Below, piece after piece: positions 30,497-51,755 of a stretch of 64,000 nt of DNA (the stretch's first letter is position 1; every line of letters begins with the position of its first letter). A model generated the notes under the pieces. It saw only the letters and a list, made by a program, of their open reading frames with translations. It was not told the DNA's origin and ran no database searches. The stretch is taken from assembly GCA_018268415.1 (NCBI GenBank), contig JAFDWO010000152.1, positions 1 to 64,000 of the forward strand, written 5' to 3'. The stretch comes from Actinomycetota bacterium. Its GTDB lineage: Bacteria > Actinomycetota > Thermoleophilia > Solirubrobacterales > 70-9. A program made the translations under genes and the position numbers.

Positions 30497-33257
<2,761 letters not shown>

Positions 33258-33265
<8 letters not shown>

Positions 33266-33707
33266 TACTGGTGAAGGACCCGCTGCCGGTGCCGGCGGTT
33301 TCGGTGGCGTTCGTTTTGAACTTCGACGGGCACTTGGTGATCAGCGATTCCGGTTCGCCGACGAAGGTCCCGTTTTCCACCGCGCCGGTGAGGACGATCT
33401 CGCGGCCGCCGCGGAACGGGTCCGGCACCATGCCCTGATAGCTGACCGGCATGGCCCCGCCACCGTTGCGGTCCTCGACTTCGAACTTGAGCGTCTCGCC
33501 GTCGTGGCGGATCGATTTCGGGACGACCTTGGCGTTCATCTCGAACTTCTGCCCGGGCGCCGCGCTGAGGATCTGCGACGGTTCCTTGGTCTGGTCCGAG
33601 GCATTGAAGCTGACGTAGATGAGCGCAACGCCAAGGAGAACCGCCACTGAGAGGGCGACACCGAGCCGAATCTTGCGCTTACGCGACGGATCCACGACGC
33701 CGGGCAT
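33258..33707 (-). CDS. ccmE: Cytochrome c maturation haem chaperone CcmE, Cys type
   Basis: 149 residues from ATG 33707 (MPGVVDPSRKRKIRLGVALS); an upstream ATG at 33737 is possible. One N-terminal membrane anchor (about 12-35) precedes an OB-fold. Instead of the usual haem-binding His, the C-terminal motif is SLITKCPSKF. Cysteine replaces histidine, as in the CxxxY type described from other bacteria, but here the aromatic residue is Phe. The tail is Thr/Ser/Gly-rich. It is followed by ccmF with an 8-base overlap. Confidence 0.92.
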
Positions 33708-33793
33708 TATCGCAAGCCGGGCCGCTCGACACATCAAGGACTCTTAAAGATCCTGGATGCCAGGCGAGGGTCCCAGTCCCAGAGCCAAATAGA

Positions 33794-34831
33794 TCAGCCG
33801 GCGACGACACGGAGCGCAAAGCGGACCAGGCGCCAGTAGGTGCGGAGCGCCAGGCGGGCGGGGGTCGAGCGGGCGACAGCGGGGATGAAGGGCGAGTCGA
33901 GATCGGCGGTCAGGGCCGCGGCGAACTCGGCCGCGGAGACGGTGCGGGCGCGGCGGATCGCGCGGCGCTCGGCGAGGAGGCGCGGCAGCCAGGCGACGAC
34001 TTCGGCGTTCGCGCGCAGCTTCTGGCCACCCCAGCCTCCCGCCGCGGCGGCCGGCAGCAGCGCCGCCTCGGTCGCCAGCAGCGCCGGCGCCAGCAGCAGG
34101 AGCAGCGAGCCGGGATAGACGCGAACCAGCGTCGCCAACCGGTTGCGCTCCAGCCAGCGCCACTTGTTCCCGGCCGAGGCGGTGAACTCGTAGTCGTGGG
34201 CGACGACCGCGGTGGGCTCGATCCCCACCGTCTCCCCCGCCAGCCGCAGCCGTAGCGAGAGGTCGACGTCCTCGTGGTACATGAAGAACCTCTCGGCCAG
34301 GCCGCCGAACCGCCGCCAGACCTCGAGCGGCACCGCCAGGCAGGCCCCCGAGAGCGCCGTCACCTCCCCCGCTCCCGGGGCCGCGCCGATCGGCTCGCCG
34401 TGCTTCCCGGCCCAGACGATCCCGGTGAAGTGGACCGGGTTGCCGGCCGAGTTGATCGTCTGCCCGTCACCCTCGGCGACCAACCCTTGCCAGGCCGACC
34501 AGCCGCGGCCCTCGAGCCAGGGACGGCGGATCGCCCGCCCCCACCCCGGCAGCGGCATCGCGTCCGGATTGAGGATCACCAGCAGGTCGCCGGTCGCGGC
34601 GCTCGCGCCGACGTTGGCGCCGCCGGCGAAGCCACGGTTACGCCCCATCGTCACCACCCGCGCTCGCGGTGCCATCTCGGCGACCACCGTGGCGGAATCG
34701 TCGGGCGAGTCATTGTCGACGACGATCAGCTCGTCGCCCTCGCCCAACTCGGCGAGGAGCGGCGGCAGCGTGCGGCGCAGCTCGGCACTGGAGCTCCAGG
34801 CGACGATCAGGACGGAGAGGGAGGGGCGCAC
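33794..34831 (-). CDS. Family 2 glycosyltransferase (WbbL/rhamnosyltransferase-like)
   Basis: 345 residues. GT2 fold signs: LSVLIVAWSSSAELRRTLPP at the N-terminus, VVDNDSPDDS, NRGFAGGANVGASAATGDLL, the DxD-like LNPDAMP and the conserved RFFMYHEDVDLSLRLRLAG acceptor-side motif. A hydrophobic patch near VRVYPGSLLLLLAPALLATE may touch the membrane. It would add a sugar to a lipid-linked or wall glycan. It lies downstream of the giant secreted-protein genes, 56 bases after the first one. Confidence 0.88.
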   Translation of the reverse strand: MRPSLSVLIVAWSSSAELRRTLPPLLAELGEGDELIVVDNDSPDDSATVVAEMAPRARVVTMGRNRGFAGGANVGASAATGDLLVILNPDAMPLPGWGRAIRRPWLEGRGWSAWQGLVAEGDGQTINSAGNPVHFTGIVWAGKHGEPIGAAPGAGEVTALSGACLAVPLEVWRRFGGLAERFFMYHEDVDLSLRLRLAGETVGIEPTAVVAHDYEFTASAGNKWRWLERNRLATLVRVYPGSLLLLLAPALLATEAALLPAAAAGGWGGQKLRANAEVVAWLPRLLAERRAIRRARTVSAAEFAAALTADLDSPFIPAVARSTPARLALRTYWRLVRFALRVVAG

Positions 34832-34887: not shown

Positions 34888-37755
34888 CTACTTCTTCTTC
34901 TTGCCCGCGCAGGACGCGACGTTCAGGCGGTACTTGTTGTTCTTGACCGTCTTACCGTTCTGGCCCTTCATGTTGAGGATGGCCAGTTGCGGGCTCTTGC
35001 AGAGGTTGGTCGAGTTCTGCAGGAGGCTCTTCTTGCCGCCCTTCATGTTGAGGACGAACGTCTTCAGCGGGACGTCCGGGGTGTTGTTGAACACCGTCTT
35101 CAGCCCGCCGTGCTTGGAGCTGATCACCCCGTCCAGCTGGATGTTGATCTGGCCCCGGAGGTTCGCCAGCAGGTCCGGCAGCTTGTGTTTGGAGGACACC
35201 AGATAGACCGGGCCCTTCAGCTTCTGCTTCAACAACGGGCTGCTCGCTTCGGCGTGGCCGTAGATCGAGTTTTGCGGGCACTGGTTGGCCGCCAGCTGGA
35301 CCCTCGTGCAGACCGTCTTGATGTGGCCCTGGTCGAGGAACAGCGAGTGCGGCAGGTTGAGCGCCGTGCGGGCGATGTTGGCGTCGCCCTTGCGAGCGTT
35401 GACGACGACCCGGATCTGCGGGTTCTTCGCCCGCGTGGTCGGGCCGGAGATCCGCGCGTGGAACGTCGGTTTGAAGTCGAGCTTGTTGCAGCCGGTCGCC
35501 TGGAACGGCGCGGAGACCGCGTAGCTCGACCAGTCACCCGCGTTGGCGGGGTTCGAGCCGCCACCGTTGATCGCCCCGGCCGTGGCCTGCGCGGAGCAGT
35601 TGGTCGGGTTGAGCATGAACTGGTGGCGGTTCATGTTCAGGTCGATCGAGCGGAGGTCCAGCTTGACGCCCCCGAACACGTTCGGGATCGGATCGGAGAC
35701 GGCGTTGACCTGGGCGGTCAGGGGGTTGATGTTGAGGGCGACGCGCACCACCACGGTGCCGAGGTCGAACGGACCTGAGACCGCGGGGGTGATGATCGCC
35801 AGCGAGAGCGGCGCCCCCTTATATGGACCGGACAGGTAGGCAGTGCCGTCGAGGCTCAGCGGGGTGTTGCCGCTGCCCGCCTTGGTCACCACCGAGCCGA
35901 CCGCGCTGTTCGACGAGCAGCTCGGGGTGGCCTGCTGTGCCCTGCCGCCGCTCGCCGCCGCCGCGGCGATTTCGGCTTCCCCGCAGTAGGGGATCCCGGC
36001 GAGCCGCCCGACCAGGCCCTTCGGCAGGGTCACGTTCACCGCCTTGATCTCCTGCTGCCCGTCTTCGCGCCCGATATGGACCTTGAACGGGCTGTACTTG
36101 CCGGCAGCCGTCGATTCGCTCGCCGCGGTGTAGCTCGGCGCGAACTTGCGGGCCGCGAGCGTGCTCGGGCAGGTGCCACCGCCGGGGACGCTGGTCAGCG
36201 GCGTGTTCGTCGACGGGGTGTTGTGGTCGGGGTTGCCGGACCACGGGGTGAATTCGGTGGTCGTCGTGTTCGGACCGCAGGTCGGCGGCGAGGTCAGGAT
36301 CCCCTTGTCACCACCGAAGAAGTGGAGGCGGAAGTTCCTGAAGGTCGCCTGCGGATTTTCGGCTACCACCGCGGTCAGCCGGCCGGTTTCCTTGTCCGGG
36401 AAGACGTTCCCCTCGAGGCGCACGTTGACGCCGTACCGGGTGGAGAACCCGTAGATGAAGATCCGGAACTGTTCACCGGTTTCGAAGACGCCCGGGCCGT
36501 TCTTGAGCGGCTGGCCGACGTACACGCTGCCGTTGATCGAGTTGGCCGGCAGCGACGGCGTCTGGATCTCCACCGTCCCGATCTTCGAGGCGTCCGGGCA
36601 TTCCACCGGAAGCGCCGTGTGGTAATGGAATTGTTCATCGGTGCACGCTTCGAGCCCGTTGCCGGCGGACGGATTGATGCCCATCCCTTCCGGCAGCGTC
36701 ACCTTCGCGACCTTGAGGTAGGAGTTCGCGATCGGCGCATTCGGATCCCAGGGGATACCCACGTCGACGGTCGTCGGTTCCGGCGAGTCGACAAACTTCG
36801 CCCCGTCCGCCGAAACCGTGATTTCGGGGTTGAACGGGACGTTTTCGCAGCCGGTGGCACCCGTGGGCGTGGTGTAGCTGGCTTCGGTGCTGGAAGCTTC
36901 GGTTTCCAGCGGCGGGCCCTGCGTGTCGAGATGCAAGGTCGAGACCTGCCCGCCGGCGCAGTTGCTCGGCATGGTCAGGTAGGTCCCGTCCGCCGCCGGA
37001 TTCAGGACGTTGGTTTCTTTCGCGCTGAAGAAGACCAGGCGCGACTCGATAATCGGCGGGCTGGCTTCCGACGGCGGGTGGATGTGGCTGATGGTGAAGG
37101 TGACGTGCTGGTCGACCGGACTCAGCGAGCCGACGATGAACGTGGGGCCGCCTTTGGTCAGGAACCCGACCATGGACGGCGTCCCATCGAAGGGAACGAG
37201 GTTGTAGACAGGCAGTGCGACCCGAGCCTGGAGGCATTCTCCGGCTGGGAGGCATTTGTTTTCCCCGTTCGGGGTCTGCGCCGCCACCGTGAGGTAGTTG
37301 ACCCCGACCAGTGACGTAGGTGGGCACGCCTTTTTTTCGAGTTCTTCGACCTTGCACTGCGGCAGCGCTTCCGGATTCACGCTCAGGCCTTCGGGCGTGT
37401 CAACCACGATGTCCTGGAGGAACGTGGTAGGGAACCCGCCGACTCCGAACAGCGATGGGTAGGTGTCGATCTTGAAGTCGGTGATCCCGTAGTTCGGGTG
37501 GCCGCCCGCTTGCGTGAAGAGCTTTTCGGCGGTGGAGCCTTTGCACTGACCGAGTGGTTCCGTCAGTTTGGGAGCCGATGATTCGTATCCCGGTTCCGGG
37601 ACTTCGAATTTCGCCGGCAGCGGGGCGGGAAGGTCTTCATTGGCCTTACAGGTCAGCGATTCCCATTTCTGGACCCCGACCGCTGCATTGGCGGTCGATG
37701 CCAGGAACAGCGCACCGAGAGCTCCCACCGCGATCACAAGCAGAAAACGCCTCAT
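34888..37755 (-). CDS. Giant secreted four-module protein, paralogue A
   Basis: 955 residues from ATG 37755 (GAGGAGGATTGACC upstream). The signal peptide is MRRFLLVIAVGALGALFLAS with cleavage near TANAA. The mature protein contains about four variants of one module, each with LPxG(L/M)-like and two-cysteine landmarks. The Cys pairs are about 134/144 (LPQCKVEELEKKACPPTS), 371/386 (ACTDEQFHYHTALPVEC), 591/613 and 816/826 (TVCTRVQLAANQCPQNSIYG). Each is followed by G-P-V-Y-like strands (GSVYVGQ, GTAYLSGPYKGAPLSLAI, GPVYLVSS). The C-terminus is KKSLLQNSTNLC...SCAGKKKK. I know no named family. Secreted, probably all-beta. Paralogues B and C follow the same plan. Glutamate is mostly GAA. Confidence 0.85.
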   Translation of the reverse strand: MRRFLLVIAVGALGALFLASTANAAVGVQKWESLTCKANEDLPAPLPAKFEVPEPGYESSAPKLTEPLGQCKGSTAEKLFTQAGGHPNYGITDFKIDTYPSLFGVGGFPTTFLQDIVVDTPEGLSVNPEALPQCKVEELEKKACPPTSLVGVNYLTVAAQTPNGENKCLPAGECLQARVALPVYNLVPFDGTPSMVGFLTKGGPTFIVGSLSPVDQHVTFTISHIHPPSEASPPIIESRLVFFSAKETNVLNPAADGTYLTMPSNCAGGQVSTLHLDTQGPPLETEASSTEASYTTPTGATGCENVPFNPEITVSADGAKFVDSPEPTTVDVGIPWDPNAPIANSYLKVAKVTLPEGMGINPSAGNGLEACTDEQFHYHTALPVECPDASKIGTVEIQTPSLPANSINGSVYVGQPLKNGPGVFETGEQFRIFIYGFSTRYGVNVRLEGNVFPDKETGRLTAVVAENPQATFRNFRLHFFGGDKGILTSPPTCGPNTTTTEFTPWSGNPDHNTPSTNTPLTSVPGGGTCPSTLAARKFAPSYTAASESTAAGKYSPFKVHIGREDGQQEIKAVNVTLPKGLVGRLAGIPYCGEAEIAAAAASGGRAQQATPSCSSNSAVGSVVTKAGSGNTPLSLDGTAYLSGPYKGAPLSLAIITPAVSGPFDLGTVVVRVALNINPLTAQVNAVSDPIPNVFGGVKLDLRSIDLNMNRHQFMLNPTNCSAQATAGAINGGGSNPANAGDWSSYAVSAPFQATGCNKLDFKPTFHARISGPTTRAKNPQIRVVVNARKGDANIARTALNLPHSLFLDQGHIKTVCTRVQLAANQCPQNSIYGHAEASSPLLKQKLKGPVYLVSSKHKLPDLLANLRGQINIQLDGVISSKHGGLKTVFNNTPDVPLKTFVLNMKGGKKSLLQNSTNLCKSPQLAILNMKGQNGKTVKNNKYRLNVASCAGKKKK

Positions 37756-37798
37756 GGTCAATCCTCCTCGGTTCGACGCGGTTGGTATCCGGTGCATG

Positions 37799-40150
37799 TC
37801 AGCTTCCCCCTCTCAGGTGGACCGGGCGGTTCAGCGTCAGGCCTCCCGACCGGCCTGAGTCGTTCAGCTTCAGCACGCCGGAGAGCGTCTTCGAGCGGCG
37901 GCCCTGGATTTCGAGCTGACCCTTGACGATTTCGCGGCCGGCCTTCGTAAGCGGCACCCGCACCTTGGTGCTCGCACCCACGGCAAGCGAGTAGTCACCG
38001 CGGGCAAACGCGGTGGACCCCTTCCCGTTCGGGCGCTTGACCGTCACCGAGACCTTGCCCGAACAGGGGCCTTCGCCTTCGCAGTGCAGCGGTACGATCA
38101 GGTCCTTGCGATCGGCAGTGAGCTTTCCGTGCAGGCCGCCCGCGCCGATCTTCTTCGGCGTTTCGACGGGCTTCGGACTCGGGGTTTCCCCACCACCACC
38201 GCCGGTCGGCTTTTCTTCGTATTCCGCGGCCAGCTGGTAGCCCGCCGGGACGACTTTCGGCGCCGGAACCTGAACCAGACCGTCCAGCGAGCCCGGCTGG
38301 TCCATCACCGGCAGGCGCAGTTCCAGGTCGGAGACCGTGACGTTCGCCTGCAGGTTGGAGAAGCGACCGTACGGGAGATCCGATGGCAGCAGTTCCAGTT
38401 TCGCCACGTGACCCGCAGCGAAGTGGTAGCCCTGCGGATGCAGTTGGAAGACCATCTCCTGGCTACCGCCGGTCGGCCGGTAGAGGCCGCGGGCGATCAG
38501 GGTCTCGGTGCCTTCCGGCGAGACGTCGACGAGCCGCGCCGCGATCTCCGAGTTGGGGCTCGGCGATTCGACCTTGGCGATGATCGTCGGCGACCCCATC
38601 AGGGTGAACCCGCCCGCCGGAGCTGGAGCGAGGCGGTAGTTGACGCTGCCAGGCTGTTCGGCGTCGGGAACCGCCGAACAAACCGTGAATCCTTTTTCCG
38701 CACCGACAATGGGGTCGAAGATCACGCCCGTCGTGGTCGGCGTTGCTTCTTCGGCGGCGCTGCGGTGCCCGATCGTCTGCGCCCCGGAGGTCTGGAAGCG
38801 GACTTCACCCGGCGCCAGCGAGCTCCAGTTCGCGGCGGCGTACGGACCTTCCGACGGCGCCGATTTGGGGCAGGTGGTGGTGAGGGCTGCGACGCTCGAG
38901 CTCGGCGCCGCGCCTTCTCCCTTCAGGTAGTGAGCGAACCACGCTTCCAGTCGTTCGTTGAAGAGGGCGACGTCCGCCGCCTTGTTCTGGCTGCGCGAGT
39001 GGCCATAGTCGGCGAAGAAGAGCGAGATCGGATCGCCGGGATACTCGGCCCGCGTCCGCTGGTACATGCGGAGCGCTTCGTCGGGCGGGAAGAGATCATC
39101 GTTCCAGCCGCTCTGGAGCAGCATCGGCGACGGCGCCTCGGAGTGTTCGATGTAGAAGGCCGAGTGGAACGCGGTGAGCTGTTCGATCATCGCGTTCACA
39201 CCCGCGTCGCTGTACGGATCGCCTCCGCGAAGTCGTTCACGCCAACCGGGGATGTCCGCTTCCGGATTGGTCGTGGAGTAATTGCTGAGTTTTTCGCCCC
39301 CGATGTAGAGGGCTTCGGTGTAGCTGTATTTCATTACCCCGATCGGGTTTTTGCCGAGCGGTCCGCGATACGACGAGTTGGTCACGTAGTCGAGATTGCG
39401 ACCGTTCGGGGCAAGCGCGTAGGCGATGTCCGTCCAGGCCCACTGCGGAACCGCCGCCGCCAGTTCCATTTCCTTTCCTTCCGGGCTGGTCCACGGGACC
39501 AGTTCGCCGCCGGGCAGCATTTCGCGATTGCGCAGCGCCGCCAGGGCGACGGAGATGCCCCCGCCGTAGGAGGCGCCGGTGGCACCGACCTTCTTCGGCG
39601 CGGCGACGCCTTCGTCGGCAAGCTCCGAGATCAGGAACTGGGCATCACGGACTTCGTAGCGATCGTCCATCAGGTGGTTGTAGCCCTGTTCGCAGACTGC
39701 TTCCGCAATCTGGGGGTCGTATTTGCCACACGACAGCCCCCAGCCTCGGTCGCTCATGCTGAAGACCGCGTAGCCCTCTTCCGCCCAGTGCTGGATGCGG
39801 GGATCTTTCTGCTGGAACGTCAGTCCTGGGGCCGGTTCCACGGTGGTGAGACCTTGCTTCGAGCCGCCCCAACCGTGGAAGTCACCGATCGTCGGGTAAG
39901 GCCCTTCAGTGCCACCGGCTTCCGGCGGCAAGAACACGTTGACGTCGATTTTCGTGCCGTCCCACGTTTCGGTGAACCCGCTGCAGGCGCGGATGTTGCC
40001 GTTCAGCGGTTGAGCCGTACAGGGAATCGTCCCGCCGTAGACCGACGAGAACGCCGCCTGCGCCGACGGTGCGACGACCAACGCCCCGACCAGCGCGAAC
40101 GCGGCCACCAGCCACCTCCATCGAGGCAGTGCCACCGAACGACCAACCAT
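37799..40150 (-). CDS. Secreted CocE/X-Pro dipeptidyl-peptidase-like (S15) hydrolase
   Basis: 783 residues. The signal peptide is WRWLVAAFALVGALVVAPSAQA. The alpha/beta-hydrolase domain has the nucleophile elbow GATGASYGGGIS (Ser in SYGG) and FADYGHSRSQNK with the likely catalytic His. QSGWNDDLFPPDEALRMYQR carries the likely Asp. A jelly-roll-like C-terminal domain follows (from about 500), as in S15 enzymes and cocaine esterase. The last ~130 residues (KKIGAGGLHGKLTADRKDLI, HCEGEGPCSGKVSVTVKRP) form an extra beta domain with a Cys pair, like tails on other secreted proteins of this group. It lies between two giant paralogues, so peptide or ester hydrolysis outside the cell is likely linked to them. 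Confidence 0.88.
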   Translation of the reverse strand: MVGRSVALPRWRWLVAAFALVGALVVAPSAQAAFSSVYGGTIPCTAQPLNGNIRACSGFTETWDGTKIDVNVFLPPEAGGTEGPYPTIGDFHGWGGSKQGLTTVEPAPGLTFQQKDPRIQHWAEEGYAVFSMSDRGWGLSCGKYDPQIAEAVCEQGYNHLMDDRYEVRDAQFLISELADEGVAAPKKVGATGASYGGGISVALAALRNREMLPGGELVPWTSPEGKEMELAAAVPQWAWTDIAYALAPNGRNLDYVTNSSYRGPLGKNPIGVMKYSYTEALYIGGEKLSNYSTTNPEADIPGWRERLRGGDPYSDAGVNAMIEQLTAFHSAFYIEHSEAPSPMLLQSGWNDDLFPPDEALRMYQRTRAEYPGDPISLFFADYGHSRSQNKAADVALFNERLEAWFAHYLKGEGAAPSSSVAALTTTCPKSAPSEGPYAAANWSSLAPGEVRFQTSGAQTIGHRSAAEEATPTTTGVIFDPIVGAEKGFTVCSAVPDAEQPGSVNYRLAPAPAGGFTLMGSPTIIAKVESPSPNSEIAARLVDVSPEGTETLIARGLYRPTGGSQEMVFQLHPQGYHFAAGHVAKLELLPSDLPYGRFSNLQANVTVSDLELRLPVMDQPGSLDGLVQVPAPKVVPAGYQLAAEYEEKPTGGGGGETPSPKPVETPKKIGAGGLHGKLTADRKDLIVPLHCEGEGPCSGKVSVTVKRPNGKGSTAFARGDYSLAVGASTKVRVPLTKAGREIVKGQLEIQGRRSKTLSGVLKLNDSGRSGGLTLNRPVHLRGGS

Positions 40151-40241
40151 CTGTCCCCTCCTCCGTTAACGCAATTCCCCAAAAGCGATAACGCCGCCCC
40201 TGCATGGCGGTACCTCATCCCACTCCCACTGGTCACACTAG

Positions 40242-40288
40242 CGTTCCAAACGGAGCGGTCAAGTCGACCGGTCCGTCGTTTTGGAACG
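40242..40288. promoter_or_regulatory. Inverted repeat between paralogue B and the S15 gene
   Basis: CGTTCCAAACGGAGCGGTC (40242-40260) pairs with GACCGGTCCGTCGTTTTGGA... (40266-40288) with bulges. It lies in a 186-base gap upstream of the S15 gene and downstream of paralogue B. It may be a terminator or operator. Confidence 0.4.
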
Positions 40289-40336
40289 GGAATCAGTACT
40301 GGGTAGGTGGTCCGGAGGTCGGAAACCGCGCCGTGA

Positions 40337-43057
40337 CTACCGTTTGGCCTTCTTGTGATGCCTGCGGTGCTTCTTGTTGCACGAGGTCTGGATGCGCGGG
40401 TGACGGGTGACCTTCTTGCCGTTCTGGCCCACCAGTCTGACGATCCCCCTGACCGGCTTCGCGCAGAGGTTCGTCGAGGCCTGCAACAGGCCGTTCTTGC
40501 CGCCCGGCAGGTTGAGGACGAATTTACTCACCGGCAGGTCGGGGATGCTCGCGAAGGTCGTGCGGATGCCGCCCTTGAAGCTGTCGATACGGCCGTCGAG
40601 GACGACGCTCACCTGGCCGCGGAGGTCGGCGACCATGTCCGGCAAGGTGTTGTTGGAGGAGCGCAGGTAGACGGGCCCTTCCAGCGGGTGCGAGAGGAGC
40701 GGCGTCCACGCGCGCGCGTAGCCGTAGCGCGATTTGGCCGGGCACTGGCCGGCGGCGAACTGGGGCCGGGTGCAGACCGTGCCGAGGCTCGACTGGTCGA
40801 GGAAGATCGCGTGCGGCAGCGCCACCGAGGCGAGGGCCGCGTTGGCCTGGCCTTCGGTGGTGGTGAGAGTCGCCTTCAGTTTCGGGTGCTTGGCGCGTCC
40901 GGTCTGGCCGAAAAGGCGGACCTTGAGACCGGGGGTGAAGGCGAGCCCTTCGCAGCTTTCGCCCTGGAAGGGGACGTTCACCTTGTCCTCGGACCAGGCC
41001 GACGGGTTGGTCGGGTCGGCGCCCCCGCCGGCGATCTGACCGGTGGTCGCGTTCTTGTTGCAGTTGGTCCCGTTGAGCGTGAATTCCTTGCGGTTCAGGT
41101 TCACCAGGATCGAGCGGATGTCGAGCTTCGCGCCACCGAAGACGTCAGGGATTTCGGCGCTGGTTTCGATCTGCCCCGATTCGGGGTTGAGGTTGAGCGG
41201 CGCGTGCACGACCACGTTGCCGAGGTCGAACGGGCCGGCCACCGCCGGGGTGATGACGACCGCCGAGAGCGGCGCCCCCTTATATGGGCCGGAGAGGTAG
41301 ACGCGGCCTTCGATCTTCAGCGGCGTCGCCCCCGTCCCGGCTTCGATCGTCGCACCCCCGATTTCGCTCTTGCCGTTGCAGCTCGGGCCTTTCAGCTCTT
41401 CGACCCCCGAGCGGCCGGCGGCCCGGTCGTATTCACGCGCTTCGCAGTAGGGGACGTTCGCGATGTTCGCGGTCGCACCGGGGGGCAGGATCAGGTTGAA
41501 GCCTTTGATCTCCTGCCGGCCTTCGTCCCGGCCGATCTTCAGCTGGAAGGGCGTGTAGGTCGCCGCCTTGGCGCTCACCGGCCGCGCGGTGACGCTCGGC
41601 ATGAACGGCCGTTCGCCCATCGACTTGGCGCAAGGCCCGCCGCCCGGCGCCTGGGTCAGGTTCAGTTCGGTGGGCGCCGTCGAGGTCGCGACCCCGGTCG
41701 AGTACGGCACCGCGCTCGAGCTCGCCGATTGGCTGCAGAGCGGCGGGCTGCTCAACACCGGGATCGCGTGCGCCGCGGTCGGGCCGAAGGTCAACGTCGC
41801 CGAGCTGAAGGCGACCTGCGGCAGTTCGTCGAATTCGGCGCTGAGTTGGCCCGTCGTCGGGTTGGCCTTCACCCTGCCTTCCTCGCGGACCTGGACGCCG
41901 TAGCGGGTCGATTCGGCGTTGAAGAAGATCCGGTACTCGTTGCCGGACTGGGGATCTCGGCTCCTCTGTTCGGCGAGGTAGACGGGACCCTTCAGCGAGC
42001 CGGGTGGCAGCTCCGGCGCTTCGATCGCGACGGTGCCGATCTGCGTTTCCGGCGCACAGACCACCGGCGCTTTCGAGTGCAACGGGAAGGCGGCGTCGGG
42101 GCAGAACTTGAGACCGGGCGCGGTCGCCGGGTTGAGGCCGACGCCTACCGGCAGGGTCACGTTCGCCGACTTCACGGTCGAGGTGTTGATCTCTTTGGCG
42201 TTCAGGTGCTGCGGGATGTTCAGTGAGACTGAGACCGTCGAGGAGGAGTCGGTCGGGCCGGTCGCCTGCGCGGCGACGCTCGGCGCGAAGGGAACCGCGC
42301 CGCAGCCCACGATCGGCACCGGCGGCGTGGTCGGCTGCGGCCCGGCGGTGGCGCCCGCCTGACTTTCCAGTTCGAGGATGCTGGTCGAGTTGCCGTTACA
42401 CGGGCTCGGCAGGGTGAGGAAGGAGCCGCCGCCACCGTTGTAGCCGCCCGCCTGGCCGTTGAACGTAAGCCGGTTCGATTCCAGCGGCGGCACCGCCGCG
42501 ATGTTGTTGATGTAGAACGTCTCGTGATAGTCACCGGCCCATTCGATCGACGTTTCGAGGTAGACGAACTCGCTGATCAGGCCCAGCGCGCTGGCGTGGA
42601 ATCCGAAGAGGGCGGGTTCACCTTCGTAGGGGACGAGGTTGTAGACGTTGGCTTCGACCGGGAGGATCGGCAGCAGGCTCGAGACCACTTTGCTCACGCC
42701 CAACTGGGAGTCGGCCGGGCAGGCGTCGTTCTGGAAGGCTTCGAGCGAGCACTGTGGAACCGCCTGGGGATTCACGTTCAGCCCGGCGGGAAGTTCCACC
42801 TTCACCCGCTTGACCTGGTCACCGCCTTGAACTTTGACCGAGAAGTCGGTGACGCCGTCCGGCGGGTGTCCCGCGGCCTGGGCGAAGAATTCACTCGGTG
42901 CGCCGCCGTAGGTGCACCCGGGCGCCGCGCAGGTCCCGGCTTCCCAGTTACCGATTTCGATCGCCGACGCGGAGGTCGTGCCGAAGGCCGCCCCGAGTAG
43001 TGCGATCAGCCCCAGGGCTCCGGCGATTCCCACAGCGTTACGTGCACTCCTCCTCAT
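40337..43057 (-). CDS. Giant secreted four-module protein, paralogue B
   Basis: 906 residues with signal peptide GALGLIALLGAAFGTTSASA. It follows the same plan as paralogue A: AGHPPDGVTDFSVKVQGGDQ, then LPAGLNVNPQAVPQCSLEAF...ACPADSQLGVSKV (module 1), LPVGVGLNPATAPGLKFCPD (module 2), LPPGATANIANVPYCEAREY (module 3) and the shared strand YLSGPYKGAPLSAVVITPAV. Module 4 has TVCTRPQFAAGQCPAKSRYG and GPVYLRSSNNTLPDMVADLR. The end is GLLQASTNLCAKP...CNKKHRRHHKKAKR, very basic. Function unknown; a wall-bound or cell-surface role is suggested by the signal peptide and basic tail. It starts 47 bases after paralogue C on the same strand. Confidence 0.85.
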   Translation of the reverse strand: MRRSARNAVGIAGALGLIALLGAAFGTTSASAIEIGNWEAGTCAAPGCTYGGAPSEFFAQAAGHPPDGVTDFSVKVQGGDQVKRVKVELPAGLNVNPQAVPQCSLEAFQNDACPADSQLGVSKVVSSLLPILPVEANVYNLVPYEGEPALFGFHASALGLISEFVYLETSIEWAGDYHETFYINNIAAVPPLESNRLTFNGQAGGYNGGGGSFLTLPSPCNGNSTSILELESQAGATAGPQPTTPPVPIVGCGAVPFAPSVAAQATGPTDSSSTVSVSLNIPQHLNAKEINTSTVKSANVTLPVGVGLNPATAPGLKFCPDAAFPLHSKAPVVCAPETQIGTVAIEAPELPPGSLKGPVYLAEQRSRDPQSGNEYRIFFNAESTRYGVQVREEGRVKANPTTGQLSAEFDELPQVAFSSATLTFGPTAAHAIPVLSSPPLCSQSASSSAVPYSTGVATSTAPTELNLTQAPGGGPCAKSMGERPFMPSVTARPVSAKAATYTPFQLKIGRDEGRQEIKGFNLILPPGATANIANVPYCEAREYDRAAGRSGVEELKGPSCNGKSEIGGATIEAGTGATPLKIEGRVYLSGPYKGAPLSAVVITPAVAGPFDLGNVVVHAPLNLNPESGQIETSAEIPDVFGGAKLDIRSILVNLNRKEFTLNGTNCNKNATTGQIAGGGADPTNPSAWSEDKVNVPFQGESCEGLAFTPGLKVRLFGQTGRAKHPKLKATLTTTEGQANAALASVALPHAIFLDQSSLGTVCTRPQFAAGQCPAKSRYGYARAWTPLLSHPLEGPVYLRSSNNTLPDMVADLRGQVSVVLDGRIDSFKGGIRTTFASIPDLPVSKFVLNLPGGKNGLLQASTNLCAKPVRGIVRLVGQNGKKVTRHPRIQTSCNKKHRRHHKKAKR

Positions 43058-43104
43058 CGCGGCGACCCCCTACCCCTCTCTTTGGCTTTGGAAAACAACG
43101 AAGT

Positions 43105-46008
43105 TCATTGGTGACAGGCGCCGACGCCGAGCGGCAACCTCTTCTTCCCCAGGCGCCTCCCGTTCTGGGCGAGGAAGCTCAGCTTCGAGAAGTACCTGTG
43201 CGCGCAGAGGTCACGCGAGTTCTGGATCAGACCCTTCTTGCCGCCCTGCATCGTCAGCGTGAACTTCTCCACCGGGACGTCGGGGATCGGTGAGAAGGTG
43301 GTGCGGATGCGGCCGTGCTTCACCGATCTGATCACCCCGTGAAGCTGGATCTCCACCTGCCCGCGCAGGTCGGCGAGCAGGTCAGGCAGCACGTGGTTGG
43401 AGGAGACGAGGTAGACCGCCCCCGCGAGCGGGCCGTCGAGCAGCGATGATTCGGCACGGGCGTAGCCATAGATCGAGGCACGCGGACACTCGTGGGCGGC
43501 GAGCTGGACCCGCGTGCAGATCGTCTTGATGTGGCCCTGGTCGATCAACTCCGCACGCGGCAGCGTCAGCGTCGCCCGGGCGATGTTGGCGTCGCCCTCG
43601 CGCGCGGTGAGCGTCGCCCGCAGCTTCGGGTGGCCCGCCCGGCGCGTTTGCGCCTTGCCGCCGAGGAAGCGGGTGACGAGCTTCGGCCGGAACTTCAGGG
43701 CCTGACAGTTCGAGGTCTGGAACGGGACCGACGCGGTGAACGAGCTCCACGCGGCGGGCGAGGTCGGGTCGGCGCCGCCCCCGCTCAGGGTCGCCGCGTT
43801 CGACATCGGGCCACAGCTGGTCGGGTTGAGGGTGAATTCCCGCCGGTTCAGTTCGATGGCGATCTGTCGGATGCTCAGTTGCGCGCCGCCGAAGACATCG
43901 GGGATCGGATCGCTGATCGCCGTCACCTGCGCCGATTCCGGATCGACCCGCAGGGCCACCCGCACCACGACCGTGCCGAGATCGAACGGCCCGGCCGTGG
44001 CGGGGGTGACGACCGCCAGGGAGAGAGGGGCCCCGTGGTAGGGGCCTGCGAGGAAGACCTTGCCGGTGATCGAGAGCGGCGTCGGCCCGGTGCCCGCCGC
44101 CACGGTGGCGACGCCGACTTCGCTCTTCGCCGGGCAGCTCGGCTGGGCCACCTGGGCGGCGCCGCTGGTCGTGGCCGCGGCGGCGATCGCGCCCTCCGGG
44201 CAATAGGGGACGCCCGCCAGCTTGGCGAGTAATCCGGGCGCCAGGGCGACCGAGGCCGCCTTCAGCTCCTGCTGCCCGTTGCCGCGGGTGATCGCGACGC
44301 GCAGCGGGCTGTAGGCGCCGGCCTCGGGGCTCCTCGGCGCGGCGGCGAAGGATGGGGCGAAGGGACGCGTGGCAAGCGTTGCCGCGCAGGTCCCTCCGCC
44401 CGGGGTGGCGTGGAGGGAGAAGTTGCCGGTCGGCACCGCGGCGGGATTGCCGGACCACGGGAGCATCCGGGCGCTGCTCGTGTTCGGGCCGCAGGTGGGC
44501 GGGCTGCTCAGCACCGCCCGTTGGCCGCCGACGAAGTCGAGGGTGAAGCTGGTGAACGGGACCTGCGGGACGTCGGTGATCTTCGTCGTCAATCGCCCGG
44601 TCACCGGGTCGGCGAAGACGTGCCCGACCAGCCGCACGTCGATCCCGTACCGGGCCGATGCGGCGTCGATGAAGATCCGGTACTCGTTGCCCGAGGTGGG
44701 GTCGCTCGATGCCTGCCTGCCGAGGAAGACGCCGCCTTCGAGGTCACCTTCCGGCAGCGCCGCGGCGGTGATCGTGGCGGTGCCGATCCGCGACCCGGCC
44801 GGGCAGGCGATCGGCGCCGTCGAGTGGAGGACGAACTGGTAGTCGTCGCAGGTCTGCAGGTGGTTCGGGTCGGCGGCGGCCGAGGGGTTGATCCCGATTC
44901 CTGCCGGCAGCCTCACCTGCGCTTCGGTGGTCGTGGAGTCGTCCTGACCGGCCGCGCTCCGGAGATGAGGGACGGTGACCGTGACCTGGGCGGCGGCGGG
45001 TGAGTTGGTTTCGTCGGTCCCCGGCGCGACCGCGAGACCCGGCGCGTAGGGAATCGTGGCGCAGCTCTTCGGCGAGGTGCCGGGGGGGATCGGCGACTCG
45101 AGGGCCGGTTCGGCGCCCCGGGGAAATTGATAGCCGGGCCGTTCCTCTTCGGCGTAGGAGGCGGCGCGAAGGAAGGTCGAATAGGCGCTGCCCGACTGCG
45201 TGAACGCCTCACCCATGCACGTACTCGGCGTGGTCAGGAAGGTGCCGTCGCCCGCGCGGCCTTCGAAGACGAGCCGGTTGCGGAGGATCAGGCCTTCGAG
45301 CCCGACCGGCAGCGCCTTCGGGACGTGGATGGTGAAGCCCTCGTGATAATCGCCGGCGGAGGCGATGTCGCCTTCGAGGAAGATTTCGTTGCCCAGCAGT
45401 TCGAAGCCGAAGCGCGCCGCTTCGCCTTCCTTGGGCGTGACGTTGTAGACGACGGCTTCGGTGAGGCCCGTGAACGGCGGCAGCGCGACGCCGAGCAGCG
45501 CGGCTTCCACCTTGCTGACGCCGACTTTCGATGCCGCCGGACAGCTCGCCGCCGACCCTTCGAAGGTCGCGAGATCGCAGCGCTCGGTCGCGCCCGGGTT
45601 GACGCTCAGGCCGACCGGGAGGTCCACCCGCACGTCCTTCAGTTCGCCGACCGGCATCTTCAGCAGTTCGAACGGGCCGAGCGACGTGGTCGTGTGCTTG
45701 ACGATGAACTGCGTGAAGGCCCGGTTCGGGTGGGCGGCGGCGGTTTCGAAGAACTGGCCCGGGGTGGCGACGGAGCATTCCGTCGGGACTTCCGGCGGTT
45801 CGGCGGTGCAGGTGCCGGCCTGCCAGCCGGAGTCGATTTCGGGGTTATGCGGGTCGAACGGTTCGCTGATGATTTCCGCGGTGTCGGCGCGGGCGACCGA
45901 CGGGATCGCGGCGCCACCGGCAACGGCACCGAGGGCGACCCCGACGCCGACCAGGGAACAGGCGATCCACGCGTCGCCCAACGACGCCTCTCTCCTCCAA
46001 CGGGCCAT
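43105..46008 (-). CDS. Giant secreted four-module protein, paralogue C
   Basis: 967 residues. The N-terminus MARWRREASLGDAWIA leads into a hydrophobic export segment ending SVARA. The layout matches A and B: AAAHPNRAFTQFIVKHTTTS, LPVGLSVNPGATERCDLATF...SCPAASKVGVSKV, LPAGIGINPSAAADPNHLQT with a Cys pair, SGNEYRIFIDAASARYGIDV, LSSPPTCGPNTSSARMLPWS and LAGVPYCPEGAIAAAATTSG. It also has FDLGTVVVRVALRVDPESAQ and the last module QGHIKTICTRVQLAAHECPR. The tail lacks the Lys/Arg run of B. It is divergent from the HTH gene at 46094 across a short AT-rich spacer, so it is probably first in the transcript towards B. Confidence 0.85.
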   Translation of the reverse strand: MARWRREASLGDAWIACSLVGVGVALGAVAGGAAIPSVARADTAEIISEPFDPHNPEIDSGWQAGTCTAEPPEVPTECSVATPGQFFETAAAHPNRAFTQFIVKHTTTSLGPFELLKMPVGELKDVRVDLPVGLSVNPGATERCDLATFEGSAASCPAASKVGVSKVEAALLGVALPPFTGLTEAVVYNVTPKEGEAARFGFELLGNEIFLEGDIASAGDYHEGFTIHVPKALPVGLEGLILRNRLVFEGRAGDGTFLTTPSTCMGEAFTQSGSAYSTFLRAASYAEEERPGYQFPRGAEPALESPIPPGTSPKSCATIPYAPGLAVAPGTDETNSPAAAQVTVTVPHLRSAAGQDDSTTTEAQVRLPAGIGINPSAAADPNHLQTCDDYQFVLHSTAPIACPAGSRIGTATITAAALPEGDLEGGVFLGRQASSDPTSGNEYRIFIDAASARYGIDVRLVGHVFADPVTGRLTTKITDVPQVPFTSFTLDFVGGQRAVLSSPPTCGPNTSSARMLPWSGNPAAVPTGNFSLHATPGGGTCAATLATRPFAPSFAAAPRSPEAGAYSPLRVAITRGNGQQELKAASVALAPGLLAKLAGVPYCPEGAIAAAATTSGAAQVAQPSCPAKSEVGVATVAAGTGPTPLSITGKVFLAGPYHGAPLSLAVVTPATAGPFDLGTVVVRVALRVDPESAQVTAISDPIPDVFGGAQLSIRQIAIELNRREFTLNPTSCGPMSNAATLSGGGADPTSPAAWSSFTASVPFQTSNCQALKFRPKLVTRFLGGKAQTRRAGHPKLRATLTAREGDANIARATLTLPRAELIDQGHIKTICTRVQLAAHECPRASIYGYARAESSLLDGPLAGAVYLVSSNHVLPDLLADLRGQVEIQLHGVIRSVKHGRIRTTFSPIPDVPVEKFTLTMQGGKKGLIQNSRDLCAHRYFSKLSFLAQNGRRLGKKRLPLGVGACHQ

Positions 46009-46093: not shown

Positions 46094-46525
46094 GTGGACC
46101 TTCCGTCAAATCGGGGTAGAGACCAGTTGGACAATGGCAACGGAAATGGAAACGGGGTCGTCAATTTGAACGGCAAAGCGTCCTCCAACGGCAACGCGGA
46201 GGGGAGTCCGTCGAGCAGCAGATCGATCCCGGTGGACTGGGAGATGCTGGCGCGGGCGACCGCCCACCCGCTGCGGGTCTCGATCCTTGAAATCCTCGGG
46301 ATCGACGGCGGCCGCGTCCTCTCCCCCAGCGACCTCAGTCAGGAGCTGCAGATCCCGCTCAGCAACACGAACTACCACGTGACCGAGCTGGCGAAGGCAG
46401 GCCTGATCGTGCTGGTGCGACAGCGCGCGGTGCGCGGCGCGACCGAGCACTTCTACACGCTTCCTGAGGCTCTATCCAAGGTCGAGGCCGAGGGCGCGAC
46501 CGCGGGTGACCCCGCCCACGTCTGA
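46094..46525 (+). CDS. Winged-HTH regulator with an Asn-Gly-rich N-terminus
   Basis: 143 residues from GTG 46094; TTG at 46127 is an alternative with GGGGTAGAG upstream. The first ~40 residues are low complexity (LDNGNGNGNGVVNLNGKASS). The rest is an ArsR-like winged helix: WEMLARATAHPLRVSILEIL, then LSPSDLSQELQIPLSNTNYH and VTELAKAGLIVLVRQRAVRG with a C-terminal wing. No metal-binding Cys pattern is seen. Because it is divergent from paralogue C, it may control the giant secreted-protein genes (inference). Its last 54 bases overlap the convergent COG4705 gene. Confidence 0.82.
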   Translation: MDLPSNRGRDQLDNGNGNGNGVVNLNGKASSNGNAEGSPSSSRSIPVDWEMLARATAHPLRVSILEILGIDGGRVLSPSDLSQELQIPLSNTNYHVTELAKAGLIVLVRQRAVRGATEHFYTLPEALSKVEAEGATAGDPAHV

Positions 46526-47332
46526 GCCGTCGAGGCCGATCTCCTCGACCCGCACGTCCATCTTCGTCTTCGCCAGCCGGCGGACGAGGAGGAAGATGAC
46601 GGCGGCCAGGATCAGGCTGACGCCGCCGGCGCCGATGCCGAGGCCGCCCCGGGCGTGGTCGACCGCGACCCAGTCGGCGACCGAGGCGCCGAGCGGGCGG
46701 GTCAGCACGTAGGCCGCCCAGAAGGCGAGCACCTCGTTCATGCCGAACCAGTGATAGCCGATGAACGGGATCGCGATCAGCGCGGTGAATAGGAGGATCG
46801 AGCCGAAGTAGCCGAGGTTGAGGCTCATCGCGGTCATGTCGCCGGCGGCGGTGCCGAGGGCGAAAGTCGCGAGGACGGTGGCCCAGTAGAAGGCCTCGCG
46901 GCGCCGGGTGCGGATCGAGTGGATCGAGAGGGTGCCCTCGCTACGGTGCCAGACGGTGAAGATGATCGCGAGGACGGCGGAGTAGAAGATCGTCGAGGCG
47001 AGGTAGGGGATGCCGAAGCCGACGTGGAGCGCGTCGGCGGCCGAGGTGCCGAAGATCGCGACCATCACGACCACACCCCAGTAGGTCCAGGCTTCATAAC
47101 GGTCGGCGCGGAACTGGCGGCGCAGGGCCCAGATCAACACGACCAACATCAGCGGAACGGCAATCACCGGACCAAGGAAGCCGTTCATCCAATCGGACGT
47201 GGTCTCCCCCATGGCGGTCGTCGCCACCTTCGTGAGCCAGAAGAACGCGATGATCTCGGGAACCTTGGTGAGCATCGTCCCCGAGAGCGATCGTCTGGTG
47301 CGGGGATTCAGGGAGAAGGGAGTGGTCGACAT
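46472..47332 (-). CDS. COG4705 membrane-anchored protein 1
   Basis: 286 residues with about eight membrane helices arranged as related hairpins. Each unit carries an acidic residue in a similar setting: KVPEIIAFFWLTKVATTAMG followed by ETTSDW, GTSAADALH, ALGTAAGDMT and RPLGASVADWVAVDH. A channel or carrier is suggested, but the family has no assigned role. Two direct OmpR-type boxes (47357-47395) lie upstream on this strand. It is paralogous to the N-terminal part of the protein at 50389. The 3' end overlaps the HTH gene. Confidence 0.85.
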   Translation of the reverse strand: MSTTPFSLNPRTRRSLSGTMLTKVPEIIAFFWLTKVATTAMGETTSDWMNGFLGPVIAVPLMLVVLIWALRRQFRADRYEAWTYWGVVVMVAIFGTSAADALHVGFGIPYLASTIFYSAVLAIIFTVWHRSEGTLSIHSIRTRRREAFYWATVLATFALGTAAGDMTAMSLNLGYFGSILLFTALIAIPFIGYHWFGMNEVLAFWAAYVLTRPLGASVADWVAVDHARGGLGIGAGGVSLILAAVIFLLVRRLAKTKMDVRVEEIGLDGSDVGGVTRGRALGLDLG

Positions 47333-50388: not shown

Positions 50389-51609
50389 TCAGGTCGCCGC
50401 CACCGCCTCGGTCGGCAGGCCCAGCTGGGCGACCCGCCGCGGGAGATCGACATGCAGCCAGTGCGAGAGGTGCACCGGCGGCGTCTCCAGGATGATCCCG
50501 GTGTAGGCACCGGCGTCGAGCTCGGCGACGATGTCGTCGTAGGCATTCGGGCTCTCCGCCACCCGTCCGGTGATCTCGCCGCCGGCCGCTTCCCGCAGCG
50601 GCGGCAGCGCCTCGGCGAGGAGGGCATCGCCGTCGACCCCGGCCGGATCGCCGCGGTCGAAGCCGAGGTGATCGGGGTTGGGGACGAGGACGCGGAACTC
50701 CGCCGGACCGACCGCGGCCCGGCGCCGCACGGCATCGATCAGCGACTCGGTCGGCGCCACCTTGTTCAGCACGACGAGCACAGCGGGGCCGGTGCCGGGG
50801 GGAGCGGCGACCGGCCCGCTGCGGATCACGTCCCGCTTGGAGATCGCCAGGTAGACGACCAGCACCAGGATCGTGCTGAGGAAGAGGATCGAGGTCATGG
50901 TGGTGCCGAGGCCGAGCCCGCCTTCGACCCGCGGCGAGGCGAGGTAGTCGCCGATCGACGCGCCCAGCGGCCGGGTGAGGATGTAGGCGAGCCAGAAGGA
51001 GAGGATCGCGTTCATCTTCAGGACGAAGTGGAGGAAGGCGATGATCGCGATCCCGCCGGCGAAGATTCCGACCGTCGGCAGGTACCCGAGGGCGAGCTTC
51101 TCGGAGAGGAGGTCACCGGCGGAGGTGCCGAGGGCGAAGGTGAAGAGGATCGTCAACCAGTAGAACGCCTCGCGCTTGGTGGTGACGATGGTGTGGACTG
51201 ACAGGGTGCGCTCGCTCGCGTACCAGGCGGCGAACACACCGATCAGGCAGGCGCTGAAGGCGATCGTCGTCGTTTCCAGCGTCACCCCGTAGTTTTCGAC
51301 GAGGTTGTCGCTGACCAACGTGCCGACCACGCTTACCAGCACCACCGCCAACCAGTAGATAGCGGGGACGTAGCGGCGTACTCGGAACTGGGCGACGATC
51401 ACCGCGATCAGGACCGCGCCCATGATGTAAGAGGTGTTGGTCAGGCCGAGCCCGAGATTTTCGTTCAGGTTGTCGGCAAAGGTCTCGCCCACCGTGGTGC
51501 AAAGCACCTTGATCACCCAGAAGTAGACAGTGATCTCGGGGACCTTGTTGAGCATGCGGCGCCCGTAGCTGGGGACCGTCGGGCTGGTGAGTGCCTGAGC
51601 TGAGTTCAT
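50389..51609 (-). CDS. COG4705 membrane protein 2 fused to a UspA-like domain
   Basis: 406 residues from ATG 51609 (MNSAQALTSPTVPSYGRRML). The N-terminal ~270 residues match COG4705 protein 1: KVPEITVYFWVIKVLCTTVG then ETFADN, FALGTSAGDLLSEK, RPLGASIGDYLASP. After the last helix (about 275-290) comes a soluble ~115-residue domain (AVLVVLNKVAPTESLIDAVR...) resembling universal stress proteins, with a final SHWLHVDLPRRVAQLG pattern. This fusion links membrane transport with a nucleotide-type sensor. An OmpR-type box lies just upstream. The role is inferred only. Confidence 0.83.
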   Translation of the reverse strand: MNSAQALTSPTVPSYGRRMLNKVPEITVYFWVIKVLCTTVGETFADNLNENLGLGLTNTSYIMGAVLIAVIVAQFRVRRYVPAIYWLAVVLVSVVGTLVSDNLVENYGVTLETTTIAFSACLIGVFAAWYASERTLSVHTIVTTKREAFYWLTILFTFALGTSAGDLLSEKLALGYLPTVGIFAGGIAIIAFLHFVLKMNAILSFWLAYILTRPLGASIGDYLASPRVEGGLGLGTTMTSILFLSTILVLVVYLAISKRDVIRSGPVAAPPGTGPAVLVVLNKVAPTESLIDAVRRRAAVGPAEFRVLVPNPDHLGFDRGDPAGVDGDALLAEALPPLREAAGGEITGRVAESPNAYDDIVAELDAGAYTGIILETPPVHLSHWLHVDLPRRVAQLGLPTEAVAAT

Positions 51610-51631
51610 GCGCGGCACTGTGGGGAACGGT

Positions 51632-51651
51632 CCTGAAAACGAGGTGAGAGA
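51632..51651 (-). promoter_or_regulatory. OmpR-type box upstream of COG4705 gene 2
   Basis: Minus strand TCTCTCACCTCGTTTTCAGG, about 25 bases from the start at 51609. A looser box, TCCTCACGCAACCTTCATC, lies at 51714-51732 on the plus strand before the glycosidase gene. Confidence 0.5.
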
Positions 51652-51755
51652 CCCATCGGACGGCCTGCCATCTGTGGGGACGGGACGGCGACGGCCCCAG
51701 CGGCGACGCGAAATCCTCACGCAACCTTCATCTTCTCGCGCAAAGGTGCGGGGCG

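What the first reader, a model, noticed from the sequence alone, without database searches (positions are those of the whole stretch)
34888..46008. Three giant secreted paralogues built from a repeated Cys-pair module
Proteins at 34888-37755, 40337-43057 and 43105-46008 (955, 906, 967 residues) share one plan. Each has a signal peptide and about four versions of a 100-150 residue module marked by LPxGL..NP, two cysteines (as in AVC/CP), I/VG and G-P-V-Y strands. They share the late block YLSGPYKGAPLS and QGHIKTVCTR-like ends. I recognise no named family. A secreted S15-like hydrolase, a glycosyltransferase and a divergent HTH regulator are interleaved, so this looks like a surface system.
Basis: partly seen in the sequence, partly recalled or inferred. 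Interest (0 to 1): 0.78.

Follow-up and report, generated by a model that had tools for sequence, protein, structure and literature searches.

The report
Secreted four-module Ig-like protein family
Three neighbouring genes of a soil-type actinobacterium encode secreted proteins each made of four related building blocks of about 200 residues; they belong to an apparently unnamed family, about half of whose examined relatives sit directly behind the gene of a propeller-like partner protein.

Summary
All three genes are on the minus strand. Each protein has four homologous modules of about 185-230 residues (not 100-150) with four regularly spaced cysteines (not two); all six module pairs match at hhalign Prob 96.6-99.6, controls 2.0 or less. 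AlphaFold is confident (pLDDT 90); fold hits are Ig-like beta-sandwiches. No Pfam, NCBIfam or PDB sequence relative was found. In genome draws it appears only in the window's order (50 of 299 class genomes, 4 of 396 phylum genomes); one record titled Phenylobacterium is a doubtful exception. Architecture is cap-(pair)n-cap: two, four, 20 or 32 modules. About half the relatives follow a propeller-repeat gene: 47 of 84 ORFs; conversely 25 of 25 such genes in 10 genomes precede a family gene. The window belongs to the other class: an old three-gene array beside an HTH and a GT2 gene; the S15 hydrolase is optional. Best reading: exported, cysteine-rich modular spacer or scaffold proteins held in the wall by basic tails. 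Function is inferred, not shown.

The parts
34888..37755 (-). Family protein A (955 aa), signal-like stretch + M1-M2-M3-M4 + Lys tail
36835..37518 (-). Protein A module M1 (N-cap type)
   Evidence: 210 bits
36163..36837 (-). Protein A module M2
   Evidence: 274 bits; separate AlphaFold model of residues 303-540, pLDDT 89.8
35479..36153 (-). Protein A module M3
   Evidence: 316 bits
34909..35475 (-). Protein A module M4 (C-cap type)
   Evidence: 263 bits
37799..40150 (-). S15/CocE-like alpha/beta hydrolase, inserted in the array; optional
   Evidence: Pfam Peptidase_S15 51.8 bits, cut-off 23; in five array loci including the window; single copy in the own genome
40337..43057 (-). Family protein B (906 aa), M1-M2-M3-M4, Lys/Arg/His tail
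42290..42883 (-). Protein B module M1
   Evidence: 158 bits
41624..42292 (-). Protein B module M2
   Evidence: 201 bits
40943..41614 (-). Protein B module M3
   Evidence: 260 bits
40379..40942 (-). Protein B module M4
   Evidence: 248 bits
43105..46008 (-). Family protein C (967 aa), M1-M2-M3-M4; only two residues after its last Cys
45199..45747 (-). Protein C module M1
   Evidence: 146 bits
44380..45051 (-). Protein C module M2
   Evidence: 238 bits
43693..44370 (-). Protein C module M3
   Evidence: 296 bits
43114..43695 (-). Protein C module M4
   Evidence: 231 bits
46094..46525 (+). Divergent winged-helix regulator (HTH_20/MarR-like) beside the array
   Evidence: Pfam HTH_20 2e-10
33794..34831 (-). 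GT2 glycosyltransferase directly downstream of protein A
   Evidence: Pfam Glycos_transf_2 2e-16
33258..33737 (-). CcmE, recurrent downstream neighbour; role in this system unknown
   Evidence: 1.8e-15
30497..33265 (-). CcmF, recurrent downstream neighbour; role in this system unknown

Best explanation
The three genes encode members of a family, so far essentially confined to one order (Solirubrobacterales by the titles of named kin), of exported proteins built as capped chains: an N-cap module M1, one or more M2-M3 pairs (none in the shortest) and a C-cap module M4, each module an Ig-like beta-sandwich with four cysteines, probably two disulphides. They leave the cell by a signal peptide and are probably held in the anionic cell wall by a Lys/Arg-rich C-terminal tail rather than by sortase or a membrane anchor. 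They act as passive structural or adhesive spacers whose length is set by the number of M2-M3 pairs. In about half of the relatives examined, a propeller-repeat protein made from the gene directly in front would be the binding head and the modular protein its carrier. In the window's class that gene is absent and three anciently diverged paralogues are made together, in an operon-like run with a GT2 that may glycosylate them or a wall polymer, beside an HTH regulator. Shown by computation: repeats, architecture, fold class, basic tail, order restriction in the draws made, propeller-gene pairing, separate orthologue groups of A, B and C. Inferred: export, disulphides, wall retention, propeller fold and its complex with the modular protein, adhesive or scaffold role, role of the GT2.
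For: Module homology with controls. AlphaFold pLDDT 90.2, pTM 0.82 full length and 89.8/0.87 for one module. Foldseek: full length 40 hits at E<=1e-3, led by integrin alpha, alpha2-macroglobulin and transglutaminase; the module hits YcnI, p53-like, pilin and collagen-binding adhesin domains, all beta-sandwich. Four Cys kept in register: CCCC in 60, 62, 60 and 44 of 64 rows for M1-M4, the rest nearly all gaps. Architecture M1-(M2-M3)n-M4 with n=0, 1, 9, 15. Hydrophobic stretch N-terminal of M1 in 74 of 77; last 25 residues 33% K/R against 9% in the body, net charge +5 or more in 66 of 77 tails against 96 of 2156 internal windows. Pairing: 25 of 25 propeller genes in 10 genomes lie 5' of a family gene on the same strand; 47 of 84 family ORFs in 64 loci have one upstream; 18 of 28 gene-called pairs overlap by four bases. 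Tree of 77: the label 'propeller upstream or not' needs 3 changes against a mean of 24 in shuffles, and A, B and C each have their own orthologues as nearest rows.
Against: No experiment. No known adhesive domain and no covalent anchor in 77 members. Protein C has almost no tail after its last Cys. The signal-peptide test is a crude hydrophobicity scan over everything before M1. Codon bias of the window trio is ordinary, 59th-66th percentile of 104 genes. No PDB hit at E<=1e-3 for the single module, and full-length TM-scores of 0.07-0.15, so a rod shape is not shown; no coordinates or error matrix were available. The partner's propeller fold rests on Pfam repeats, which for the query used (L076) are below the Pfam cut-off (19.3 against 20.9). 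No ORF carries both parts. 32 of 57 family match groups in the 10 genomes have no propeller hit in front, and 4 of the 10 genomes have none at all.
Confidence: 0.5

Rival explanations
1. Major wall-coat or S-layer-like proteins: the three paralogues tile the cell as an abundant coat.
For: Three co-encoded paralogues of one size, conserved as a set in several genomes; beta-sandwich modules with basic tails.
Against: Codon bias is not ribosome-like; no Pfam hit of any kind, so no known S-layer anchoring domain; genomes carry up to 25 matches to the family, which does not fit one coat protein.
Confidence: 0.15
2. Ligand- or metal-capture proteins: each module is a binding domain of the YcnI kind (copper) and the chain collects a ligand.
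For: YcnI structures are among the best Foldseek hits of the single module, probability 0.97-1.00, target TM 0.55-0.62; one His (86, in M1) is at least 90% conserved; CcmE/CcmF lie next door; a 4642-aa member has a sub-threshold CusF hit, 14.5 bits against 27.
Against: E-values 0.004-0.013 only, no Pfam match; the 23 invariant columns are Gly, Pro and Cys except one Arg, Asp and Phe, with no His or Trp.
Confidence: 0.12
3. Part of a polymer-degrading or polymer-binding apparatus, with the S15 hydrolase and GT2 as the active members.
For: S15 lies inside the window's array; GT2 is a recurrent neighbour.
Against: S15 is missing in five three-gene arrays, and the own genome has one S15 copy of this kind against seven long family matches.
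Confidence: 0.1
4. Variable recognition proteins (kin or phage recognition) whose expansion reflects diversifying selection.
For: Expansion within one order and strong differences within the genus, 1 to 25 matches.
Against: Protein A's nearest kin are 77-84% identical in conserved gene order; nothing in PHROGs or PADLOC. Rates of change were not tested.
Confidence: 0.1

Closest known systems
Fibrillar adhesins (stalk + adhesive domain + anchor; PMC9210967, passages read)
   Same: long chains of repeated Ig-like domains with an export-type N-terminus
   Different: no known adhesive domain, no sortase motif or membrane anchor, modules match no Pfam stalk family
Periscope proteins (PMC8201768, passages read)
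   Same: length varies by the number of tandem folded domains
   Different: repeat pairs in two giants are only 48% and 42% identical (medians); length differs between genera, not tested between strains
Integrin alpha ectodomain
   Same: propeller associated with beta-sandwich legs (recalled); top full-length Foldseek hits
   Different: two separate genes, TM-scores of about 0.1, no sequence relation, no propeller gene in the window's array
YcnI (DUF1775, recalled name) copper protein
   Same: Ig-like sandwich that superposes on about half a module
   Different: no sequence match, weak E-value, no shared metal site seen
PD40/NHL/FN3 propeller-repeat proteins
   Same: Pfam repeats of these kinds in five partner proteins scanned
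   Different: in the 10 genomes searched each one lies 5' of a modular gene, and most have a basic tail (29 of 36)

Membership tests
Fibrillar adhesin | large length | tested here: met
   906-967 aa here; open frames of 500-7223 aa in the family
Fibrillar adhesin | rod-like repetitive region | tested here: inconclusive
   repeats met; rod shape not shown, no coordinates
Fibrillar adhesin | adhesive domain | tested here: not met
   known domains only: 0 Pfam families for the three window proteins at E<=1; weak Foldseek hits to collagen-binding adhesin domains, E about 0.03
Fibrillar adhesin | cell surface anchor (sortase motif or membrane segment) | tested here: not met
   0 of 77 and 0 of 77 members with a C-cap module
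Periscope protein | highly identical tandem repeats | tested here: not met
   two giants: median identity 0.48 and 0.42, maximum 0.68
Periscope protein | repeat number varies between close strains | not tested
   one genome per species was held
S-layer protein | very high expression | tested here: inconclusive
   codon bias at the 59th-66th percentile
S-layer protein | known S-layer domain | tested here: not met
   no Pfam or NCBIfam hit
YcnI / DUF1775 | sequence profile match | tested here: not met
   0 Pfam families at E<=1
Integrin alpha | propeller and legs in one chain | tested here: not met
   no ORF carries both profiles among 54 and 99 ORFs
Peptidase S15 / CocE (gene 37799-40150) | profile match above cut-off | tested here: met
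   Peptidase_S15 51.8 bits against 23; NCBIfam CocE_NonD 47.1, below its cut-off of 66.3
Peptidase S15 / CocE (gene 37799-40150) | peptidase or esterase activity | not testable with these tools
   a GASYGG serine motif is visible in the translation (motif meaning recalled)

The most novel reading that the evidence does not exclude
A two-component extracellular fibre peculiar to Solirubrobacterales: a beta-propeller head and a capped, extendable Ig-like stalk made from adjoining, often overlapping genes and assembling outside the cell, a two-gene analogue of the head-and-leg plan of integrin alpha. The window holds the propeller-less, three-stalk version.
Probability: 0.22. Interest if true: 0.75.

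Novelty: new variant of a known kind. Interest (0 to 1): 0.55.

Why it matters
The family has no name in the libraries searched, follows a simple building rule (cap, repeat pair, cap) that yields proteins from about 500 to over 7000 residues, and comes in two genomic forms, one with a matching partner gene. If the reading is right, it is a main kit for building envelope or extracellular fibres in an order of soil bacteria on whose surface proteins my searches of the held papers listed nothing of this kind. Cultured Conexibacter strains carry it, so it can be tested.

Tried and rejected
Single-domain secreted-looking neighbours (cluster c10, about 255 aa, which resemble a module by eye): hhalign to the modules reaches Prob 4.4 at most, above the reversed controls (0.4 at most) but far from significant, so homology is not supported. 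A second neighbour cluster, c4: Prob 1.2 at most. Disulphide pairing from co-loss of cysteines: too few real losses. High-expression test by codon bias: negative. Viral fold library: no hit at E<=1e-3. Plasmid and phage collections: no tblastn match of protein A. Conserved neighbours of the two-module proteins: none that I noticed, but the output was cut. The first alignment had two rows read on the wrong strand and was redone. Of 64 loci, three (L062, L065, L091) were dropped from the 64-row alignment for stops or frame. My GC3-based gene caller missed propeller genes; it found one upstream of 28 of 83 family genes, whereas profiles on stop-to-stop ORFs found 47 of 84, which is the count I use. 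The 10 genomes were picked by me from those already positive for the family, mostly in few contigs, so 25 of 25 says that the propeller gene does not occur without a family gene there, not how common it is. In one search the distance between match ends was allowed up to 2500 bp; it was 126-548 bp in 23 cases and 1020 and 1395 bp in two own-genome cases, whose gene calls adjoin; intervening genes were not checked in the others.

Full report
What was claimed. Three secreted paralogues at 34888-46008 with about four copies each of a cysteine-pair module, no known family, in a surface locus.

Check. The ORFs exist, all on the minus strand. Search of the own genome (4.74 Mb, 160 contigs) finds seven long matches: the three here and one each on C13, C67, C24 and C149; two more matches are weak, one of them beside the C67 gene. 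Splitting protein A into four segments and comparing profiles of 60-64 sequences gives Prob 96.6-99.6 for all six pairs; one reversed and one column-shuffled control per pair give 2.0 or less. Cysteines recur in register, four per module. The module is thus about 185-230 residues with four cysteines.

Family. Pfam and NCBIfam (E<=1), PHROGs and PADLOC (E<=0.01) list none of the three, and no PDB chain matches the profile at E<=1. One two-module, one four-module and one 4642-aa member are also blank in Pfam except for one sub-threshold hit. Twelve of 12 genomes of the genus, the own one included, have 1-25 matches, and 26 of 41 near relatives overall (matches can be parts of one gene). In an even draw of the class 50 of 299 genomes are positive, all in the window's order; in an even draw of the phylum 4 of 396, all in that order; the own genome counts in both. 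Of the 64 loci in named records nearly all are titled Solirubrobacterales, Solirubrobacteraceae, Conexibacter, Patulibacter, Thermoleophilia or Actinomycetota; one is titled only 'bacterium' and one Phenylobacterium, which I suspect is misbinned (not tested). A genome that the tool calls same order (G138) holds the L076 sequences of Conexibacter arvalis at 100%, so I take the order to be Solirubrobacterales.

Building rule. With one profile per module type, three proteins of 500-593 aa read M1-M4, the usual ones M1-M2-M3-M4, a 4643-aa protein nine M2-M3 pairs then M4 (its first module is a weak hit of 32 bits), and a 7223-aa protein M1 (30 bits), fifteen M2-M3 pairs, M4, counted by me over two overlapping regions. 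Pairs within these two giants are 48% and 42% identical (medians). Some members carry several hundred residues before M1, 376-844 in three of the own genome.

Structure. AlphaFold with 64 sequences: pLDDT 90.2, pTM 0.82; a single M2: 89.8 and 0.87. Strands dominate. Foldseek of the full model gives 40 PDB hits at E<=1e-3, multidomain beta-sandwich proteins such as integrin alpha, but with TM 0.07-0.15 in the rows shown. The module returns YcnI, p53, integrin alpha, pilins and collagen-binding adhesin domains, none at E<=1e-3, and nothing at that level in the viral library. So: beta-sandwich of Ig-like class, no specific relative.

Export and retention. Of 84 family ORFs in 64 loci, 77 have a C-cap module. 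Of these 74 have a hydrophobic stretch somewhere before M1 (a crude test); none has a sortase-like motif in the last 50 residues or a membrane-like stretch in the last 120. The last 25 residues are 33% Lys/Arg, and 66 of 77 carry a net charge of +5 or more, against 96 of 2156 internal windows. Protein C is an exception, ending two residues after its last cysteine. Electrostatic retention in the wall is my inference.

Two genomic classes. (i) Propeller-coupled: a protein with PD40, NHL or FN3 repeats precedes the family gene. Five were scanned: NHL passes its cut-off in three and PD40 in one, while L076 has only a sub-threshold PD40 hit; 29 of 36 end in a basic tail; their export was not tested. 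In 10 genomes all 25 such genes found with one query lie 5' of one of 57 family match groups on the same strand; 32 of the 57 have none, and four genomes (G110, G177, G272, G307) have no hit. One own-genome propeller gene that this query missed was found with another query and is paired too. In the 64 loci 47 of 84 family ORFs have it upstream, 11 follow another family gene, 8 have no room, 18 have neither. Of 28 gene-called pairs 18 overlap by four bases. (ii) Uncoupled, as in the window: HTH (divergent), C, B, sometimes S15, A, GT2, then CcmE, CcmF and a desaturase-family gene. One search lists 11 such loci: HTH in 8, GT2 in 8, CcmE or CcmF in 9, S15 in 5 (four genomes); five three-gene arrays lack S15. 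Some uncoupled genes are single (L039, L040, L041, for example). On a quick tree of 77 sequences (47 coupled, 30 not) the label needs three changes against a mean of 24 for shuffled labels, and A, B and C each have orthologues from other genomes as nearest rows: the triplication is older than those genomes' split. Another genus has tandem arrays without a propeller gene too (L121).

Reading. The simplest account is a passive exported scaffold or spacer, with the propeller protein as head where present. The gene pairing is shown; the physical complex, the adhesive role and the wall location are not. An S-layer role gets no help from codon bias.

Literature. Searches of the held library listed nothing that by title or abstract concerns this family; one search was made to find comparison papers. 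I read passages of PMC9210967 and PMC8201768 and the abstract of PMC3035278 (C. woesei cells may aggregate after longer growth). Absence from these searches is not proof of absence from print.

Noticed in passing
window about 30500-30860 (minus): The CcmF protein ends in a low-complexity tail of roughly 105 residues of Asn-Gly and Ala-Asn repeats.
   Followed up: no
window 46472-47332 and 50389-51720 (minus): Two DUF347 repeat proteins near the array; a gene of the same cluster also lies beside the array in L037, L038 and L046.
   Followed up: partly
L053, L056, L011, L049 and five other loci (cluster c4): A second secreted-looking family of about 300 aa (HLENP.LG..CY.GSSS.P) recurs in 9 loci near family genes, four copies in L053; the one member scanned has no Pfam hit.
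   Followed up: partly
L013, L050, L051, L054, L056, L058, L062 (cluster c10): A secreted-looking family of about 255 aa near family genes resembles a single module by eye but not by profile comparison; the one member scanned has no Pfam hit.
   Followed up: partly
L092: A propeller-repeat gene and a family gene lie in a record titled Phenylobacterium sp., possibly a misbinned contig.
   Followed up: no
L109, L110, L111, L126: Giant family ORFs of 4643-7223 aa occur in four genomes of one genus of the order; the two whose C-terminus was read (L109, L111) end in Lys-rich regions.
   Followed up: partly
L121 (2966-18500): Four family genes in a row without a propeller gene, in a genome with 16 matches.
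   Followed up: partly
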